Shown piece after piece: positions 8,011-15,464 of a DNA stretch of 64,000 bases. The notes beneath the pieces were generated by a model. That model was not told where the DNA came from. It worked only from the letters and a program-made list of their open reading frames with translations, and did no database searches. The stretch lies in contig CASDZW010000012.1 of NCBI GenBank assembly GCA_949285915.1, positions 27,992-91,991 on the forward strand, given 5' to 3'. Numbering within the stretch: the stretch's first letter is position 1; every line of letters starts with the position of its first letter. Position numbers and translations under genes: made by a program. Source of the stretch: an uncultured Collinsella sp. (GTDB lineage: Bacteria; Actinomycetota; Coriobacteriia; Coriobacteriales; Coriobacteriaceae).

Positions 8011-8412
8011 TTAGAGATCGGCCTCCTTGCGGCACATGCCGTCGAGGATGGCGGCGACGAGCGCCAGCACACCGATGAGGGCAGCTGCCACGGGGACATC
8101 GGCGCCCAGACCGGCGGCGAAGATGGTCAACACCGCGAACACCACTACGAGGATAGCGACGAGGCGGTGGCTGCCGAGGCGGCTCGGCTGGTTGGCGCCG
8201 TGGATACCCATGACGGCGCAGAAGAAGGTGAGCACGGCACAAACGAGGTAGAGAATGCCGTCGATGTTAGCGACGAGCACGCCGAGGACGCCGGCCTCCT
8301 CCTCAGCAAGGTTGCCGGCGAAGAAGCCGAGGCAGCCGAGGAAGACGGCTACGACTGCCATAACGATCTGCAGTAGGCTCACGATCTTGAGAGCTTTGCG
8401 GTTGGTGGACAT
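8011..8412 (-). CDS. Small four-helix membrane protein of unknown function
   Basis: This 133-aa protein begins MSTNRKALKIVSLLQIVMAV and has four hydrophobic helices with short loops, ending in a charged CRKEADL. I do not recognise the family. The start is set by AAGGAGGTC four bases upstream of the ATG; a longer in-frame extension lacks a binding site. It is a single-gene unit divergent from the solute-binding protein. Confidence 0.75.
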   Translation of the reverse strand: MSTNRKALKIVSLLQIVMAVVAVFLGCLGFFAGNLAEEEAGVLGVLVANIDGILYLVCAVLTFFCAVMGIHGANQPSRLGSHRLVAILVVVFAVLTIFAAGLGADVPVAAALIGVLALVAAILDGMCRKEADL

Positions 8413-8633: not shown

Positions 8634-9494
8634 ATGCAGGACATTTCGAGAAGGGGCTTTATCGGCCTCGCGCTCTCGGGTGCCGTCTGCTTGACGGGGG
8701 GACTTGCCGGTTGCACTGGCGGGGCTCCCGCTGGCAGCGGCTCTAGCGCCCAAGCAACTGTTTCGGCCAGCTCGGATACGCTGCGCGTGGGTGTGCGTGC
8801 CGACATCGTGGGTTTTGGGTACCTGAACGATCAGACGGGCAAGTACTACGGCCTCGAGATTGACATAGCCAATGACCTTGCGGAACGTCTCGGTTACAAG
8901 AGCGTGAGCTTCAGCACGGTCACGCCCGAGAATCGCAAGGATATGCTGCTCGACGGTGATATCGATGCGCTTATTGCGTGCTACTCCATTGCTGAGACGC
9001 GCCTCGAGAACTTTGATTTCTCGCCCGCCTACTATGACGACGCCATCGTCGCGGTGGTTGAGAATTCGTCGCTGATTGAGTCGATTGACGATCTTCGTGG
9101 TTGCACGTTCGGCTGCATGGGTGGTGCGAACGCGGCACCGTTGCTGAACAACAAGCTGAAAGAGATTGGTTTCTCGGCCGGCACGGACAAGATCTTGGGT
9201 GCCGACGACGTCGACGTGAAGTTTGATACCTGGCGTCTTGTTCAGTTCCCTTCTTATCAGGAGCTTTCCGATGCGCTTGAGGAGGGAGCGGTTGACGCCA
9301 TGGTTCTCGACGGCGCTATCGCAAAGACGTACATGAATGACGAGCGCTCCATTCTCGACGGTTTTAACGTGGACGAGGTCTCTTACGGCGTTGCGACCGT
9401 CAAGGGCTCCGAGCTCTCCGCGCGCGTCGCGTCTGCAGTTCAGGACATGCTCGACGACGGCACGATCGATGCGCTCGTCGATAAGTGGGACTAG
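8634..9494 (+). CDS. Tat-type lipoprotein, amino-acid-like solute-binding protein (SBP family 3)
   Basis: This 286-aa protein begins with SRRGFIG, a twin-arginine-like motif, followed by a hydrophobic stretch and the lipobox LAGC, so it should be lipid-anchored outside the membrane. The mature part has the family 3 periplasmic-binding fold, with LRVGVRADIVGFGYLND, GLEIDIANDLAERLG, and DGDIDALIACYSIAETRLENFDFS, the region that contacts the ligand in amino-acid binders. No permease or ATPase is adjacent. The next gene, 12 bp away, is an MscS channel with its own sensor domains. GGAGG lies four bases before the ATG. Confidence 0.85.
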   Translation: MQDISRRGFIGLALSGAVCLTGGLAGCTGGAPAGSGSSAQATVSASSDTLRVGVRADIVGFGYLNDQTGKYYGLEIDIANDLAERLGYKSVSFSTVTPENRKDMLLDGDIDALIACYSIAETRLENFDFSPAYYDDAIVAVVENSSLIESIDDLRGCTFGCMGGANAAPLLNNKLKEIGFSAGTDKILGADDVDVKFDTWRLVQFPSYQELSDALEEGAVDAMVLDGAIAKTYMNDERSILDGFNVDEVSYGVATVKGSELSARVASAVQDMLDDGTIDALVDKWD

Positions 9495-9506
9495 GGGGCG
9501 ATTTGT

Positions 9507-12500
9507 GTGAAGATGTCCAAGAAGCTGACCGTGAAGGTCGGGGCGCTCATCGTTGTCGCGGTTGCGAGCCTCGTCATCATGGCCATCGCGCTCACGGGGA
9601 TGCAGGGCTCGCTTACCCGCTCGGGTTACACCGAAGAGATCAAACAGGAGGCCGCGGAGTTGCCGGAGCTTCTGGCCGAGGCCGAGACCGAGACCGCCGA
9701 CAACACCGAGCAATATGACGCCATCTACCAGTCCAAGGCAGCTCAGGTCGCTTTCATGGCGCAGAACGAGACCGGGTTTGAGGCCACCGATGCGAAGATG
9801 GCAGAGTATCGGGAGCTGCTCGGAGTCGACAATGTCATGGTGGTGAACCGCTCTGGCGACATCGTCGCCAAGGCGGAGGCTACCGATGCCGACTTCGCCT
9901 ACGCGCGTTTCAACCAGCTGCGTCAGACCTTCGATACCCACCAGCCTTCCGCTGCGGTTGAGATTGACCTCCCTGAGCAGGATTGGCTCGATCGCTATTA
10001 CGCCGATCGTATCGATGATGAGACCATGGTCGTGATTGAACAGAATCCTGAGGAGCTTCGCGCACTCGTTGAGCAGTCCGGCTCCATCGCGAGCGTGCTC
10101 GGAAACATCACGCTCGGCCAGAATGGCTTTGTTTTCGCCGTCTCCGCTCAGGATTACCTGATTGATTATCATCCCGATGAGAATCTGGTGGGTGCCGATG
10201 CCATTGACGCCGGCATCGATGTCGCCGCGCTCGAGGACGGTTCCTTCTCCACCATGACCCTTGACGGCGAGGAGCTGTACTGCGGTGTCACCCTCATCGA
10301 TGGTACGTACTACATCTGTGCCGTGCCCGAGGCTGACATGGCATCTTCGAGTGCCATTACCGTCGGGGTTATCCTTTTCGCGTTCTTTGTGGTTATTGCC
10401 GCGGTGACGCTCTACGGTATTTTTGTCCTGCGTGATGAGGAGTTCCGAGGCGCAGGCAGTGACGTCGCCGACGACGCTGGGAAGGCAGCTTCCGCCCGTC
10501 GCATCAACGCGCGCGTCGCCCCGCGTGCCGCGGTTCTCTGCCTGGTAGGCTTCTTCGCAATTCTCGCGGTGTCGTTCTACATGCAGACGCTGTTCGCGCT
10601 GTCCTCTCAGTCCCTCACCATGAACGAGCGCGTGGCGGATATCGCAGACACTATCGAGCGCACGGAGAGCGCAGCGGATGAGCTCACGGCACAGTATAAC
10701 GAGCGCTATCTCTCCAAGGCCGAGGTCGCTGCTTATATCATCGAGCGAAATCCCTCCCTTGCGACGCGCCCCAAGCTGCAGGAGCTCGCCGACGCACTCC
10801 AGATTCAGTCGGTCTTTGTGTTCAACACCGCCGGTGAGATGACCGCCACCAACTCCAGCTACACCAACTTCACGCTCTCCGAGGACCCCGAGGATCAAAG
10901 CTATGAGTTCCGCAAGCTCCTCCAGGGTGTCGATTCGCTCGTTCAGGAGCCCCAGCCCGACGAAATCTCAGGCGACCTAAAGCAGTACATTGGTGTTACC
11001 ACCCACAATGACGCCGGCGATTTGACGGGCTTCGTGCAGCTGGGCATCCGCTCCAGTCGTCTGGAGAACATGCTCGCAAGTGTTCAGATCGATCATGTCC
11101 TCGACGGCGTCCAGGTGGGCACTGATGGCTTTGCCTTTGCTGTCAATAAGTCTGATGACACCTTTGCCTACTATCCCAATGCCAACACCATTGGCAAGGT
11201 CGCAACTGAATGCGGGCTCACTGAGGCTCAGCTGCGCGATGGCTTCTCTGACTACATTACGGTGAATGGCGAGACCTACTACGCCTCCGCGACCGAGACC
11301 TCGGACTACTACATCTTCGTCGCTGGTAGCGAAGGCGCTCTCATGGGCGACCGCGTGCCGCTGACGTTGACGACGGGCGCGATTGCGCTCGTATGCCTGC
11401 TCGTGGTATTCGGTTTGCTCGTGTGGGATACAGGCGTCGTCGCGGCATCTCCTGCGGAGGAGCGCGCCTCCGACGAGCCGCGCCGTATGATTGAGGTTTC
11501 TGTGGGCGACCGTCGCGTGCGCACCGAATCCGCGGCAAGCCGCTGGCTCAACCGCTCGTTCCATTGGGACGAGATGACACCTGAGCAGAAGCTGGGTACC
11601 GTGCTCAAGTGCTTCCTGGGGCTGGGCGCTATCCTGGTCGCAATTGCGGTCATCTTCAAGGACTCGATTTTTGAAAAGGGCTCGCTGTTCGCCTATATCC
11701 TCGGTGGCGGCTGGGCGCACGGCCTCAACATCTTTGCGATCACCGCATCCATCATGTTCGCGTGCGTCATCTTGACCATCGTCACCATCATTCAGAAGAT
11801 CCTGCAGATGATCGGTGGCGTGCTCGACGCGCGCGGCCTCACTATCTGCCGCCTAGTGTCGAGCGTAGCCAAATACGGTGCCATGATTGGCATGCTCTAC
11901 TGGTGCCTGGCGCTGCTCGGCGTCGATACGGCGACGCTCTTGGCTTCGGCGGGTCTCCTCACCTTCGCGGTGTCTCTCGGCGCGCAGGGCATCGTCTCCG
12001 ATATCATCGCGGGTCTTTTCATTATCTTTGAGGGCGAGTTCCGCGTCGGCGATATCATCCAGGTCAGTGGCAACAAAGGCACCGTGATTGAAATCGGCGT
12101 GCGCTCGACGAAGATCAATGACGGTTCCGGCAACATCCTGGTGTTGCGCAACTCGAGTGTCTCCAACGTGGTCAATATGACCAAGGAGCACAGCTACGCT
12201 GCGGTCGAGGTTGGTATCGAGTACGGCGAGAGCCTGGAGCGTGTGGAGAATATCCTTTCCGAGGAGCTCCCCAACATCAAGAAGCGTCTGCCCGCCATCA
12301 TCGACGGCCCGTTCTACAAGGGTGTCACAATGCTTGCGGACAACTCGGTCAACATCAAGATTGTGGCGGAGTGCGCCGAGAAGGATCGCGGCGGTCTTAC
12401 CAACGACCTGAACCGAGAGATGAAGCTGCTCTTCGACAAACACGACATTTCGATTCCGTATCCGCAGGTCGTCATCAACAAGCCCACGGTATTCAAGAAG

Positions 12501-12620
12501 GCTACCGAGGCCGAGAAGGCTGCTGCCGACAAGTTCAACGCGGAGCAGAAGGAAGCCATCAAGAATCTGGTGGACGAGGACGAGGATTTCGACGAGTTCA
12601 ACGACTCCAACCGCCACTAA
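9507..12620 (+). CDS. MscS-family channel fused to two Cache-like extracytoplasmic sensor modules
   Basis: This 1037-aa protein starts at GTG, seven bases after AGGGGGCG. Visible order: helix (about 10-31), extracytoplasmic domain to about 280, helix (280-308), cytoplasmic linker, helix (341-362), second extracytoplasmic domain, helix (618-641), linker, then a channel part with helices near 697-721, 739-766 and 787-806. The MscS pore helix and beta domain follow (about 810-930: LLASAGLLTFAVSLGAQG, then FRVGDIIQV). Both outer domains carry Cache-like signatures (GQNGFVFAVSAQ and GTDGFAFAVNKS, each with a tyrosine pair near the end), so the module looks duplicated. Ordinary MscS has about 280 residues. 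The tail is acidic. Confidence 0.85.
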   Translation: MKMSKKLTVKVGALIVVAVASLVIMAIALTGMQGSLTRSGYTEEIKQEAAELPELLAEAETETADNTEQYDAIYQSKAAQVAFMAQNETGFEATDAKMAEYRELLGVDNVMVVNRSGDIVAKAEATDADFAYARFNQLRQTFDTHQPSAAVEIDLPEQDWLDRYYADRIDDETMVVIEQNPEELRALVEQSGSIASVLGNITLGQNGFVFAVSAQDYLIDYHPDENLVGADAIDAGIDVAALEDGSFSTMTLDGEELYCGVTLIDGTYYICAVPEADMASSSAITVGVILFAFFVVIAAVTLYGIFVLRDEEFRGAGSDVADDAGKAASARRINARVAPRAAVLCLVGFFAILAVSFYMQTLFALSSQSLTMNERVADIADTIERTESAADELTAQYNERYLSKAEVAAYIIERNPSLATRPKLQELADALQIQSVFVFNTAGEMTATNSSYTNFTLSEDPEDQSYEFRKLLQGVDSLVQEPQPDEISGDLKQYIGVTTHNDAGDLTGFVQLGIRSSRLENMLASVQIDHVLDGVQVGTDGFAFAVNKSDDTFAYYPNANTIGKVATECGLTEAQLRDGFSDYITVNGETYYASATETSDYYIFVAGSEGALMGDRVPLTLTTGAIALVCLLVVFGLLVWDTGVVAASPAEERASDEPRRMIEVSVGDRRVRTESAASRWLNRSFHWDEMTPEQKLGTVLKCFLGLGAILVAIAVIFKDSIFEKGSLFAYILGGGWAHGLNIFAITASIMFACVILTIVTIIQKILQMIGGVLDARGLTICRLVSSVAKYGAMIGMLYWCLALLGVDTATLLASAGLLTFAVSLGAQGIVSDIIAGLFIIFEGEFRVGDIIQVSGNKGTVIEIGVRSTKINDGSGNILVLRNSSVSNVVNMTKEHSYAAVEVGIEYGESLERVENILSEELPNIKKRLPAIIDGPFYKGVTMLADNSVNIKIVAECAEKDRGGLTNDLNREMKLLFDKHDISIPYPQVVINKPTVFKKATEAEKAAADKFNAEQKEAIKNLVDEDEDFDEFNDSNRH

Positions 12621-12669
12621 CGCTGCGCCACGCCACACAGTGCGCTAGGATGACGCAGGCAAGGAGGTG

Positions 12670-12707
12670 CCGGCCCGAAGGCAAGAGGCTTTCGGGCCGG
12701 TTTTCTT
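12670..12707 (+). terminator. Intrinsic terminator after the MscS fusion gene
   Basis: Stem CCGGCCCGAA / TTCGGGCCGG with an 11-nt loop and a TTTTCTT tail, 50 bp past the stop codon. It separates the SBP-MscS pair from the next operon. Confidence 0.85.
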
Positions 12708-12828: not shown

Positions 12829-14163
12829 ATGTCCGAGTCGGAGAGAACGCCCAACGCAGTTGCGCCGCAGGGCGGCGGTGCATCTCCTTTACCGGAGGCC
12901 CCCGCGACTGAGCGCAAGATTCCCCTGATCCTCAAGATCTACGGCTTCCTCTGCATGGCGGACGGCATCATCACGGTGCCGATGGTCTTTATCTTCTTGG
13001 GCCTTGTGTGGTGGGCGGCTTTCGCGCGGCCCGACCTCATCTCGATCGGTAGCGACCCGACGCTGCCGATGATTCTCATGGCAATCTCCATCGTGGTGTC
13101 GCTCGGCAACGGGATTGCACTCATCATCTTTGGCCATTCGCTTCTTAAGAACCGCCGCCGCAACGCCGCGCGCTGGTCGCACGCGCTTATTGCCACCACG
13201 CTCGTTCAGATCATCCTGCGCATCATGCTCGAGGGTATCGGCACCAACCTCATCGCCGACGCCATCCAGCTTGCGATCGTGCTTACCCTCTCCGTCACGG
13301 TCGACCCGCAGCTGCGCCACGAGCGCCATATGAAGCAGGTCATGCGCGACCTCACCGACCGCGAGGCGGCGCGCGCCGGAATGCTCGGTCGCGACCTCGA
13401 GGGCAAGGGCTACATCGAGCTCAACTTCTTCAACCTGTTCTGGGTCTTCACCGTCTGCTGCGTGCTCGGCCTCATCATCGAGACCATCTACCACATGGTC
13501 GTGGTCGACCCGGGCGTCTACCAGGACCGCGCGGGCATGCTCTTTGGCCCGTTCTCGCCCATTTATGGCTTTGGCGCCGTGCTCATGACGGTTGCCCTGA
13601 ACCGCTTCTACAAGGCGAATCCCGTCATCATCTTTGTGGTCTCCGCCGTGATCGGCGGCCTCTTTGAGGCGGCGGTCAGCTGGTTCATGCAGACCGGCTT
13701 TGGTGCGGTTGCCTGGGACTACTCCGGCTCCACCATCTTTGGGCTCTTCCCCGACCCGGTGGCGGTCATATTCCAGGGACGCACCTCAACACTCTTTATG
13801 TGCATGTGGGGTGCGCTCGGTTTTGTGTGGATCAAGTTCTGCCTGCCGTGGCTTTTGAAGTTCATCAACATCATCCCCTGGAAGGTCCGCTACAGCTTCA
13901 CCACGCTCTGCGCGATTCTTATGCTCGTGAACGGCGTCATGACGCTGCAGGCGCTCGACTGCTGGTTCGAGCGACTCTCGGGCACCGCGGGCACCACACC
14001 TGTGGAGGAGTTCTACGCCAAGAACTTCGATAACGCCTACATGCAGCACCGCTTTGAGAGCATGACCATCACGCCCGAGAACTCCGGTCGTGTGGACAGC
14101 TCTGCCGTGGCAGACGCTGTGGCAGAGCCCGCCGCCGGCTCGTCTGAGGCGGGTGCGGCATGA
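12829..14163 (+). CDS. CmpB-like putative ABC-transporter type IV membrane protein
   Basis: This 444-aa protein has a hydrophilic N-terminus (about 30 residues), four helices in the first 200 residues, then a region matching the CmpB-like family (Pfam PF06541 as I recall it). Visible family motifs are MLFGPFSPIYGFGAVLM, a conserved Glu in GGLFEAAVSWFMQ, AWDYSGST and MCMWGALGFVWIKF. The family name says ABC transporter, but no ATPase is adjacent and the activity is unproven. The C-terminus is Ala/Ser-rich. GGAGG lies seven bases before the ATG. The stop overlaps the lipase-like start (ATGA). Confidence 0.8.
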   Translation: MSESERTPNAVAPQGGGASPLPEAPATERKIPLILKIYGFLCMADGIITVPMVFIFLGLVWWAAFARPDLISIGSDPTLPMILMAISIVVSLGNGIALIIFGHSLLKNRRRNAARWSHALIATTLVQIILRIMLEGIGTNLIADAIQLAIVLTLSVTVDPQLRHERHMKQVMRDLTDREAARAGMLGRDLEGKGYIELNFFNLFWVFTVCCVLGLIIETIYHMVVVDPGVYQDRAGMLFGPFSPIYGFGAVLMTVALNRFYKANPVIIFVVSAVIGGLFEAAVSWFMQTGFGAVAWDYSGSTIFGLFPDPVAVIFQGRTSTLFMCMWGALGFVWIKFCLPWLLKFINIIPWKVRYSFTTLCAILMLVNGVMTLQALDCWFERLSGTAGTTPVEEFYAKNFDNAYMQHRFESMTITPENSGRVDSSAVADAVAEPAAGSSEAGAA

Positions 14164-15464
14164 CGGAGCGCAAGCGCCCCCGCTGGGGCCTGAGAATCCT
14201 TGCCGCACTCGGCGTGGTGCTCGTCGCCTGCGGCATTGCGCTTGCCGTCGCGGTGCACCATCGCCAGGAGCAGGAGCGCTTGGGGCTCGGCGTGGTCTCC
14301 GAGCCCACGGCGCCGCAGGAGCTCGCGGACTCGTCCGCGCGCACGGGCGCCTTCACCACTGATATTGAGTTCACCACCATGGCAACGGGCGCTGCGACCG
14401 TCTCTACCGAGGTGGCGTGGGACGATGCGTGGTTCTTCCAGGACCCCGCGGTCTACAACCACGAGCTCGCCACCACCTGCGCAGTGCTCTCTGCCGTTGC
14501 CAACTCGGAGTCCGGCTACTATCAGGCCGGTTCGGGCGGCCGCGCCTACATGGAGGAGGCGCTCGCCGCGCTCGGGTTTGAGGATATCTCGACCGCATCC
14601 TACCAATACCGCAGCGAGATCTTTGACGAGATTGTCGACGCCCTTACCGGTACCGACGACGTCGTGGCCTACTCGGTGGCGACCAAGCGCCTTGTTGCCG
14701 AGGACGGAAGCGAGAAAACGCTCTTCCTCGTCTCCGTGCGCGGCAGCTACGGTTCCGAGTGGCTGAGCGACCTCAACATGGACTTTGACAAGGACTATGC
14801 CAACGTCGAGCATGAGGGTTTCATGCGGTCCGCCAACGAGATTGTGGAGGACCTCGCCACGCGTATTACCAACGAGGCCGAGCTCGACGGCACCGACGAC
14901 ATTGCGCTGTTGTTCTGCGGCCACTCCCGCGGTGCCGCGACGGCCAACATCGCCGCCGCCTACGCCGACGAGATGACGACGAGCCTTCGCTCGTTTGCCC
15001 CGCTCGAGAGCATCTACTGCTACACCTTTGCGGCGCCCGAGGTGACGCTCTACGAAGACGTGGATGACCCGCTGTTCGACAATATCTTCAACATCCTGAA
15101 TCCGAGCGATATGGTGCCACGTATGCCGCTTGCGGAGTGGGGCTACGCGCGCTACGGCCATGACCTCATGCTCCCCGGCTACGGTGACGAGGGCTTTGGC
15201 GCGGCACACGAGGCGATGTGCGCGACGTTTAAGGAGAACACGGGGGTCGAGAGTCCCTATGTGCCCGAGGACCGCGAGCACGTCGATAAGCTGATCGCCG
15301 ACCTCGCGCGCGAGGTGCCCACGGTGGACGATCTGTTCTCGCTGGGCGGTGTGGCGTCGCTTGTGCACGACCTTCTCGCCGACATCAACCCCATGCAGGT
15401 GCTCTACGGACACTACCCAAGTGTCTACATCGCTTGGATGCAATCGCTCGATACGCTGGTTTAG
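14160..15464 (+). CDS. Class-3 lipase-like alpha/beta hydrolase, membrane anchored
   Basis: This 434-aa protein has a short basic start, one N-terminal helix (about 10-30) and a large extracytoplasmic domain. The nucleophile elbow is GHSRGAA (Ser near residue 256) after a buried strand ALLFCGH, the layout of lipase class 3 and related hydrolases. Candidate acid and histidine residues lie in the segment from NPSDMVPRMP to GYARYGHDLM. The substrate is unknown. It is translationally coupled by a 4-bp overlap to the CmpB-like gene, which suggests a shared role at the cell surface. Confidence 0.75.
   Translation: MTERKRPRWGLRILAALGVVLVACGIALAVAVHHRQEQERLGLGVVSEPTAPQELADSSARTGAFTTDIEFTTMATGAATVSTEVAWDDAWFFQDPAVYNHELATTCAVLSAVANSESGYYQAGSGGRAYMEEALAALGFEDISTASYQYRSEIFDEIVDALTGTDDVVAYSVATKRLVAEDGSEKTLFLVSVRGSYGSEWLSDLNMDFDKDYANVEHEGFMRSANEIVEDLATRITNEAELDGTDDIALLFCGHSRGAATANIAAAYADEMTTSLRSFAPLESIYCYTFAAPEVTLYEDVDDPLFDNIFNILNPSDMVPRMPLAEWGYARYGHDLMLPGYGDEGFGAAHEAMCATFKENTGVESPYVPEDREHVDKLIADLAREVPTVDDLFSLGGVASLVHDLLADINPMQVLYGHYPSVYIAWMQSLDTLV

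What the first reader, a model, noticed from the sequence alone, without database searches (positions are those of the whole stretch)
8634..12620. Solute-binding lipoprotein paired with a double-sensor MscS channel
The sequence shows a family 3 solute-binding lipoprotein with no ABC partner, 12 bp upstream of a 1037-aa MscS protein that carries two copies of a helix-Cache-like domain-helix module before the channel. MscS channels open under membrane tension. Two outer ligand-type domains plus an orphan binding protein suggest a channel whose gating is tuned by an external ligand such as an amino acid or compatible solute. This is inference; no such pair is known to me.
Basis: partly seen in the sequence, partly recalled or inferred. 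Interest (0 to 1): 0.75.

Follow-up and report, generated by a model that had tools for sequence, protein, structure and literature searches.

The report
Amino-acid-tuned pressure valve in gut bacteria
Gut bacteria of several groups carry, side by side, a gene for a pressure-valve type channel with two predicted outer sensor domains and a gene for a protein of the kind that catches small molecules outside the cell; the two genes are inherited together, and the catcher likely docks on the channel so that an outside amino acid, probably glutamate or aspartate, would tune when the valve opens.

Summary
An orphan family-3 solute-binding protein (SBP, 8634-9494) lies 12 bp upstream of an MscS-type channel (9507-12620) with two outer domains, D1 and D2, whose models match double-Cache structures and which are homologous to each other.
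The pair is conserved. In a Coriobacteriia scan, 53 of 54 loci with a close channel (best segment at least 51% identical) have the SBP directly upstream. So do 57 of 80 named loci (paired ones in Actinomycetota and Bacillota); none of the 19 at 36% identity or less does. Of 54 SBP orthologues, 52 sit beside the channel.
A D1 motif, R-[FY]-N-x-L-R/K (residues 134-139), marks paired channels: 62 of 62 against 0 of 23 unpaired in the discovery set; 5 of 6 against 0 of 14 in a later set (4 independent pairs: 3 strict, 1 near miss). The SBP keeps an aspartate/glutamate-like pocket. An aquaporin gene is a recurrent neighbour elsewhere, not here.
Most likely the loaded SBP docks on the channel, probably on D1, and shifts its tension threshold. 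Docking, ligand, gating effect and its direction are untested; a co-divergence test did not favour D1 over D2. Nearest precedents: MscK and GlnH-GlnX.

The parts
8634..9494 (+). Family-3 solute-binding protein, predicted lipoprotein (286 aa)
   Evidence: SBP_bac_3 85.9 bits; orthologue beside the channel in 52 of 54 genomes that have it at E 3e-51 or better
8634..8714 (+). Signal part: SRRGF start and lipobox-like LAGC with Cys27
   Evidence: read from the sequence; lipobox pattern in 39 of 62 and RR in 32 of 62 paired SBPs
8796..9311 (+). Predicted ligand pocket: R55, R101, C116, S118, R123, Y208, D226
   Evidence: R101, R123, Y208, D226 in 61 of 61; R55 in 59 with 2 gaps; S118 58 Ser and 3 Thr; C116 Cys 45, Thr 9, Ala 7
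9495..9506 (+). Intergenic gap, 12 bp
   Evidence: gap 2-19 bp in 56 of 62 pairs
9507..12620 (+). MscS-type channel with two outer domains (1037 aa; 1035 aa from the ATG of 9513)
   Evidence: PF00924 and PF21088 over cut-off; model pLDDT 78.7, pTM 0.58
9528..9596 (+). TM1 (about residues 8-30)
   Evidence: hydropathy peak 11-29
9597..10352 (+). Outer domain D1, tandem-Cache fold (residues 31-282)
9906..9923 (+). Motif RFNQLR (residues 134-139) that tracks SBP presence
   Evidence: 62 of 62 paired, 0 of 23 unpaired; later set 5 of 6 and 0 of 14
10353..10436 (+). TM2 (about residues 283-310)
   Evidence: hydropathy peak 284-302
10518..10592 (+). TM3 (about residues 338-362)
   Evidence: hydropathy peak 341-359
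10593..11360 (+). Outer domain D2, Cache fold (residues 363-618)
   Evidence: dCache_1 E 1e-8, under cut-off; structural matches; homologous to D1
11361..11426 (+). TM4 (about residues 619-640)
   Evidence: hydropathy peak 621-639
11577..12476 (+). MscS channel core (about residues 691-990)
12669..12701 (+). Terminator-like hairpin after the pair
   Evidence: 14 pairs, 10 of them G-C; the scan as a whole finds no more than shuffles do

Best explanation
The two genes very likely encode one device: an MscS-type pressure valve whose opening would be tuned by an outside amino acid, probably aspartate or glutamate, caught by the predicted lipid-anchored SBP that likely docks on the channel's outer Cache domains. 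Proposed steps: (1) the SBP closes on its ligand (inferred from pocket residues); (2) the closed SBP docks on the membrane-distal Cache of D1, around the helix that carries R134-x-N136-x-L138-R139 (inferred from the motif that tracks SBP presence); (3) the D1/D2 arms of the channel's subunits form an outer ring, and docking shifts that ring and with it the tension needed to open the MscS pore (inferred; MscK has a periplasmic gating ring and needs external K+); (4) the pore releases small osmolytes, glutamate among them (established for MscCG, inferred here). I lean to the loaded SBP being a co-agonist, as K+ is for MscK; inhibition by the exported product is almost as likely. Shown here: the genes, their conserved pairing, Cache-like models, the conserved pocket residues, and the correlation of the D1 motif with the SBP. 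Not shown: binding, docking, gating.
For: Pairing: SBP directly upstream in 54 of 65 loci of the class scan, and in 53 of the 54 whose best segment is at least 51% identical; in 57 of 80 named loci. Reciprocal: of 54 SBP orthologues at E 3e-51 or better among 396 genomes, 52 lie beside the channel, one is split over contigs, one is a truncated remnant without a channel. SBP and channel distances correlate (Mantel r 0.87, n 57). Tie to D1: of positions at least 93% conserved in paired channels, 10 of 25 in D1 but 1 of 25 in D2 are lost in unpaired channels (Fisher p 0.005). At matched pore identity the D1 distal Cache is 0.36-0.49 identical between paired channels and 0.16-0.23 between unpaired ones. 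Motif 62 of 62 against 0 of 23; later set 5 of 6 against 0 of 14. On a tree of the channel part alone the SBP label changes at least 5 times, and the motif or its near form goes along. Pocket. Recurrent aquaporin neighbour. Precedents: MscK, GlnH-GlnX, MscCG.
Against: A partial-distance test gave no preference of the SBP for D1 over D2 (0.344 against 0.343; D2's helix was highest, 0.459). Paired-only conservation is not confined to D1: 5 of 14 such positions lie in the MscS part 691-780. The motif could belong to a pocket of D1 itself. The position of GlnH Thr162 is Cys here (Cys 45, Thr 9, Ala 7 of 61), so acid specificity is not certain. Many related channels have no SBP (0 of 19 named loci at 36% identity or less have it). 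The strict motif is missing in one paired channel (L195, RFRxLR). The full-length model is of moderate confidence, and no complex was modelled. The aquaporin is not near the pair in this genome.
Confidence: 0.6

Rival explanations
1. D1 itself is the receptor: the RxNxLR helix lines a ligand pocket in its distal Cache, and the SBP only gathers or delivers the same ligand or serves a parallel purpose, without docking.
For: R134, N136, R163 and Y165 are invariant in 32 paired D1 domains. The universal amino acid motif of dCache_1 domains also has an arginine two places before its Trp (YxxxRxWY, PMC9901441). SBP distance does not favour D1.
Against: The dCache_1AA motif is absent. It does not explain why the motif is present only where the SBP gene is.
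Confidence: 0.2
2. The SBP feeds an ABC permease encoded elsewhere, for instance to recapture amino acids that leave through the channel; the genes share an operon because both answer osmotic stress.
For: Family-3 SBPs usually serve ABC permeases (established knowledge); the genome has 16 BPD_transp_1 matches. The aquaporin neighbours fit a shared osmotic theme.
Against: A shared regulon does not predict the D1 motif that follows the SBP nor the near-perfect reciprocal linkage. No permease match lies on this contig.
Confidence: 0.15
3. The two genes merely travel together; the channel is an ordinary emergency valve whose outer domains are spacers.
For: Related channels exist without the SBP, so the outer domains do something without it.
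Against: Tight gap, linkage across families and two phyla, and the correlated motif.
Confidence: 0.05

Closest known systems
MscK of Escherichia coli (potassium-dependent MscS-type channel)
   Same: MscS pore with a large outer part; gating by tension and by an external ligand; a periplasmic gating ring (PMC9653487, abstract).
   Different: The ligand is K+, and no binding protein is mentioned in the abstract. The window's protein scores far under MscK's model (47.4 against 991 bits).
GlnH-GlnX-PknG of mycobacteria and corynebacteria
   Same: Orphan aspartate/glutamate SBP lipoprotein encoded beside a membrane protein with four TM segments and two outer domains that is proposed to receive its signal (PMC6069109 and PMC9769921, passages).
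   Different: GlnX's outer domains are helical bundles and the output is a protein kinase, not a pore.
MscCG of Corynebacterium glutamicum
   Same: MscS-type channel of an actinobacterium that exports glutamate (PMC6110860, abstract).
   Different: The abstract, the only part read, mentions neither outer Cache domains nor an SBP partner.
alpha2delta subunits of animal calcium channels
   Same: Two dCache_1 domains serving an ion channel, the first with an amino acid pocket (PMC9901441, passages).
   Different: A separate subunit of an unrelated channel, with the amino acid motif intact; no SBP.
LuxP-LuxQ of Vibrio (recalled; not read here)
   Same: A periplasmic binding protein that docks on a tandem PAS/Cache-like sensor domain (recalled). 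LuxQ-periplasm was seen only as a Cache-clan family in PMC4822843 (passages).
   Different: The output is a histidine kinase and the ligand autoinducer-2 (recalled).

Membership tests
MscS channel family | Beta-domain and pore-helix models over cut-off | tested here: met
   PF00924 57.0 (cut-off 20.2), PF21088 27.4 (cut-off 23.1); PF21082 17.6 is under its 21. Structural matches to MscS.
MscS channel family | Opens under membrane tension as an oligomer | not testable with these tools
   needs patch clamp and a structure
Double Cache (dCache_1) domain | Pfam dCache_1 score over cut-off | tested here: inconclusive
   D2 35.3 against 45, D1 16.3; yet the database's own annotation lists PF02743 for the identical protein P0003.
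Double Cache (dCache_1) domain | Two PAS-like modules on a long N-terminal helix, matching solved double-Cache domains | tested here: met
Amino-acid-binding dCache_1 (dCache_1AA) | Motif YxxxRxWY ... Y ... D (as given in PMC9901441) | tested here: not met
   no R-x-W anywhere in the window's protein
Family-3 SBP | SBP_bac_3 over cut-off | tested here: met
   85.9 bits against 26.4
Aspartate/glutamate-binding SBP (GlnH/PEB1 kind) | Residues for the ligand's amino and carboxyl groups (Ser164, Arg169, Asp250 in GlnH) | tested here: met
   S118, R123 and D226 are Ser in 58 (Thr in 3), Arg in 61 and Asp in 61 of 61. Equivalence is by spacing and by the profile alignment to 2v25, not by a direct alignment to GlnH.
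Aspartate/glutamate-binding SBP (GlnH/PEB1 kind) | Residues for the side-chain acid (Arg147, Trp232, Thr162 in GlnH) | tested here: inconclusive
   Arg101 61 of 61; Tyr208 (61 of 61) in place of Trp; Cys116 in place of Thr in 45 of 61. NCBIfam's best row is an aspartate/glutamate-binding model, under its cut-off (101 against 373).
Aspartate/glutamate-binding SBP (GlnH/PEB1 kind) | Measured binding of aspartate or glutamate | not testable with these tools
   needs calorimetry
MscK | NCBIfam MscK model over cut-off | tested here: not met
   47.4 bits against 991
GlnH-GlnX system | Partner membrane protein with helical-bundle outer domains | tested here: not met
   the outer domains match Cache folds instead

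The most novel reading that the evidence does not exclude
This is the first mechanosensitive channel under the control of a separate soluble receptor: a binding protein loaded with extracellular aspartate or glutamate clamps the RxNxLR helix of the channel's first Cache domain and resets the tension at which the MscS pore opens, so that gut bacteria (often with an aquaporin gene alongside) match the release of glutamate-type osmolytes to how much is already outside. It is an ion-channel counterpart of LuxP-LuxQ.
Probability: 0.4. Interest if true: 0.85.

Novelty: new variant of a known kind. Interest (0 to 1): 0.72.

Why it matters
MscS channels are textbook safety valves opened by force from the membrane; the abstract on MscK calls it unique in also needing an external ligand. 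A family common in gut Actinomycetota and Bacillota with two outer sensor domains and a dedicated binding protein would show that bacteria put a pressure valve under chemical control. It would give a Cache-plus-channel system simpler than the alpha2delta calcium-channel one, and it bears on amino acid release by gut bacteria. It also makes a question directly testable: natural channels with and without the SBP and its motif exist, so which outer domain takes the signal can be asked by comparing or swapping them.

Tried and rejected
Co-divergence of the SBP with D1 against D2, given the channel core: no difference. It counts against pinning the docking site on D1.

The amino acid motif of dCache_1AA was not found. 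A profile search of PDB sequences with D1 gave no Cache chain (best E 0.037, unrelated), and with D2 only weak chemoreceptor rows (best E 0.0045). The Cache assignment therefore rests on structural models, the weak Pfam match and D1-D2 homology.

Compatible-solute ligand: set aside because the pocket keeps amino acid residues. ABC partner next door: the gene at 12829-14163 carries the Pfam name ABC_trans_CmpB, a putative membrane family, and is not a BPD_transp_1 match.

LysR and small-membrane-protein neighbours recur but on either side of the pair, so I did not make them parts. A read-through fusion of the two genes as a mock complex was considered and not done: its five-residue link would hold the SBP on the wrong side of the membrane.

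The contrast of raw group averages was confounded by the lower diversity of paired channels; one search repeats it at matched pore identity. There too the C-terminal part and others differ at the lowest identities, and sequence pairs share rows.

Literature: 0 papers hold 'mechanosensitive channel', MscS and 'Cache domain' together, and none of the papers listed describes an MscS-SBP pair by title and start of abstract (lists were capped: 20 of 118, 5 of 5, 12 of 257, 10 of 29, 1 of 1). Most subscription papers are not in that library.

Rows left out: L001 and L002 in all locus counts. In the motif count, paired ORFs under 700 aa and unpaired ORFs under 850 aa; the 23 unpaired include L109, whose open frame begins inside D1's region. 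L109 was left out. In the later set I fetched 20 of 49 places: left out were three genomes seen before (G396, G398, G399), the 3' half of G639, G527 (a long frame with stops in the match) and the short plain-MscS matches.
Full report
What is there. The window is part of a Coriobacteriaceae genome (G000:C12, about 82% complete). G324, labelled same genus, has the contig length of the Candidatus Coprousia avicola record (47,434), a genus of that family. The SBP gene 8634-9494 and the channel gene 9507-12620 run in the same direction with 12 bp between them. A terminator-like hairpin of 14 pairs follows at 12669-12701, though the scan as a whole finds no more sites than shuffles do. The SBP has a twin-arginine-like start, a lipobox-like Cys27 and a clear family-3 domain.

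How general the pair is. A search with the channel matched 64 of 396 Coriobacteriia genomes at 1e-30. I took DNA around 65 matches (L003-L067). In 54 the SBP lies directly upstream (two of these SBPs are cut or partial, L019 and L054). Of the 11 without it, four match only the plain MscS part, one lies at a contig edge, one is a rearranged fragment (L055), and five are distant long relatives. Of the 54 loci whose best segment is at least 51% identical, 53 have the SBP. A scan of named genomes kept the best 80 loci (555 candidates encoded a relative, so 80 is a cut), from Coriobacteriia, one Bifidobacterium, many Lachnospiraceae, Oscillospiraceae and Erysipelotrichaceae, and Spirochaetota. In 57 of 80 the SBP is directly upstream, all of them Actinomycetota or Bacillota or unnamed in rank. 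At 39% identity or more it is 57 of 61, the four misses being two broken channel genes (L109, L127) and two contigs that begin inside the gene (L129, L137); at 36% or less it is 0 of 19. The two sets share genomes and are not independent. In 56 of 62 pairs the gap is 2-19 bp. From the SBP side, 54 of the 396 genomes have an orthologue at E 3e-51 or better: 52 beside the channel, one cut between contigs (G371), one truncated and without a channel (G225). SBP and channel distances correlate at r 0.87 (57 pairs; largest of 999 permutations 0.19), as co-inheritance predicts.

Tie between SBP and D1. At pore identity 0.52-0.58 the D1 distal Cache is 0.40 identical between paired channels and 0.16 between unpaired ones; D2 distal is 0.39 and 0.28 (pairs of sequences share rows and are not independent). 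Of positions at least 93% conserved in paired channels, those at most 35% conserved in unpaired ones are 10 of 25 in D1 (95-275), 1 of 25 in D2 (421-610), 2 of 66 in pore, beta domain and C-terminal part, but also 5 of 14 in residues 691-780 of the MscS part. The sharpest mark is R-[FYWH]-N-x-L-[RK] at 134-139: 62 of 62 paired and 0 of 23 unpaired channels. Among database proteins whose neighbours I did not see, it is in 116 of the 120 closest homologues and 0 of 16 distant ones. The loci had also given me the motif, so I tested it on Lachnospiraceae genomes drawn afterwards (397 searched; 20 of 49 places fetched): 5 of 6 paired and 0 of 14 unpaired have it. Of the six, L181 looks like a near copy of L121 and L182 has the contig length of L093, so four are independent: three with the strict motif, and L195 with RFRxLR (Fisher p 0.005 for 3 of 4 against 0 of 14). 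At least one unpaired row, L185, is a near copy of L130, seen before. On a tree from the channel part alone the SBP label needs 5 changes, at least 4 forced by well-supported branches, against about 20 in shuffles. L058 against its sister L052, L195/L196 inside an unpaired clade, and L193 (weakly placed) among unpaired rows show the motif or its near form together with the SBP. Against pinning the contact on D1: within paired channels SBP divergence follows D1 and D2 equally, and the motif could belong to a pocket of D1 itself.

The ligand. The profile's best solved relatives are 2v25, the Campylobacter major cell-binding factor (PEB1, name recalled), and AncQR, tied by E-value. Aligned over 61 SBPs, R101, R123, Y208 and D226 are invariant, R55 is present in 59 with 2 gaps, and S118 is Ser in 58 and Thr in 3. 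In GlnH of M. tuberculosis Ser164, Arg169 and Asp250 hold the amino acid's main groups and Arg147, Trp232 and Thr162 its side-chain acid (PMC6069109, passages). By spacing these are S118, R123, D226, R101, Y208 and C116; the last is Cys in 45, Thr in 9 and Ala in 7. I predict an acidic amino acid. The equivalence rests on spacing and on the 2v25 alignment, not on a superposition.

The setting. An aquaporin gene (Pfam MIP) lies next to the channel or pair in 12 of 65 class loci (many of these loci hold only 1.5 kb upstream) and near it in 18 of 80 named ones (up to 2.8 kb away). In seven it precedes the SBP on the same strand with 54-207 bp between. Of 55 genomes with the pair or its remains, 46 have a MIP match. 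In the window's own genome it is on another contig. This speaks for a role in water and solute balance in the relatives.

Mechanism and comparison. MscK needs external K+ as well as tension and dilates a periplasmic ring on opening (PMC9653487, abstract). GlnH-GlnX shows how an orphan aspartate/glutamate SBP is proposed to signal through a neighbouring membrane protein with two outer domains (PMC6069109 and PMC9769921, passages). MscCG is an MscS-type glutamate exporter (PMC6110860, abstract), and MscS of Bacillus methanolicus is reported as one too (PMC12541555, search listing). Animal alpha2delta proteins carry two dCache_1 domains, the first binding amino acids (PMC9901441, passages). Put together, the best reading is an SBP-controlled valve. 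Its direction of action, its ligand and the docking face are predictions. No listed paper or 83 describes such a pair.

Noticed in passing
8014-8412 (-): Small membrane protein without a Pfam match; relatives lie near the pair in other loci and beside SBP-less channels L052 and L062.
   Followed up: partly
L091, L092, L093, L097, L098, L100, L106: Three-gene run aquaporin - SBP - channel on one strand in Lachnospiraceae and other Bacillota.
   Followed up: partly
L133 and L134: Aquaporin gene near channels of the same family that have no SBP, so the aquaporin link may be independent of the SBP link.
   Followed up: no
L006-L010, L012, L033, L035, L037-L039, L043-L045, L047, L050, L051, L056: A LysR-type regulator gene lies upstream or downstream of the pair in these 18 of 65 class loci.
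   Followed up: no
12829-14163 and 14160-15464 (+): Downstream genes: a membrane protein that Pfam names ABC_trans_CmpB and a class-3 lipase.
   Followed up: no
G000:C8:13622-14464: A paralogous SBP (38% identical) beside two BPD permease matches, likely an ordinary ABC counterpart of the orphan SBP.
   Followed up: no
L130:1039-3729: An 896-aa ORF upstream of an SBP-less channel begins with what looks like an SBP-type domain; not analysed.
   Followed up: no
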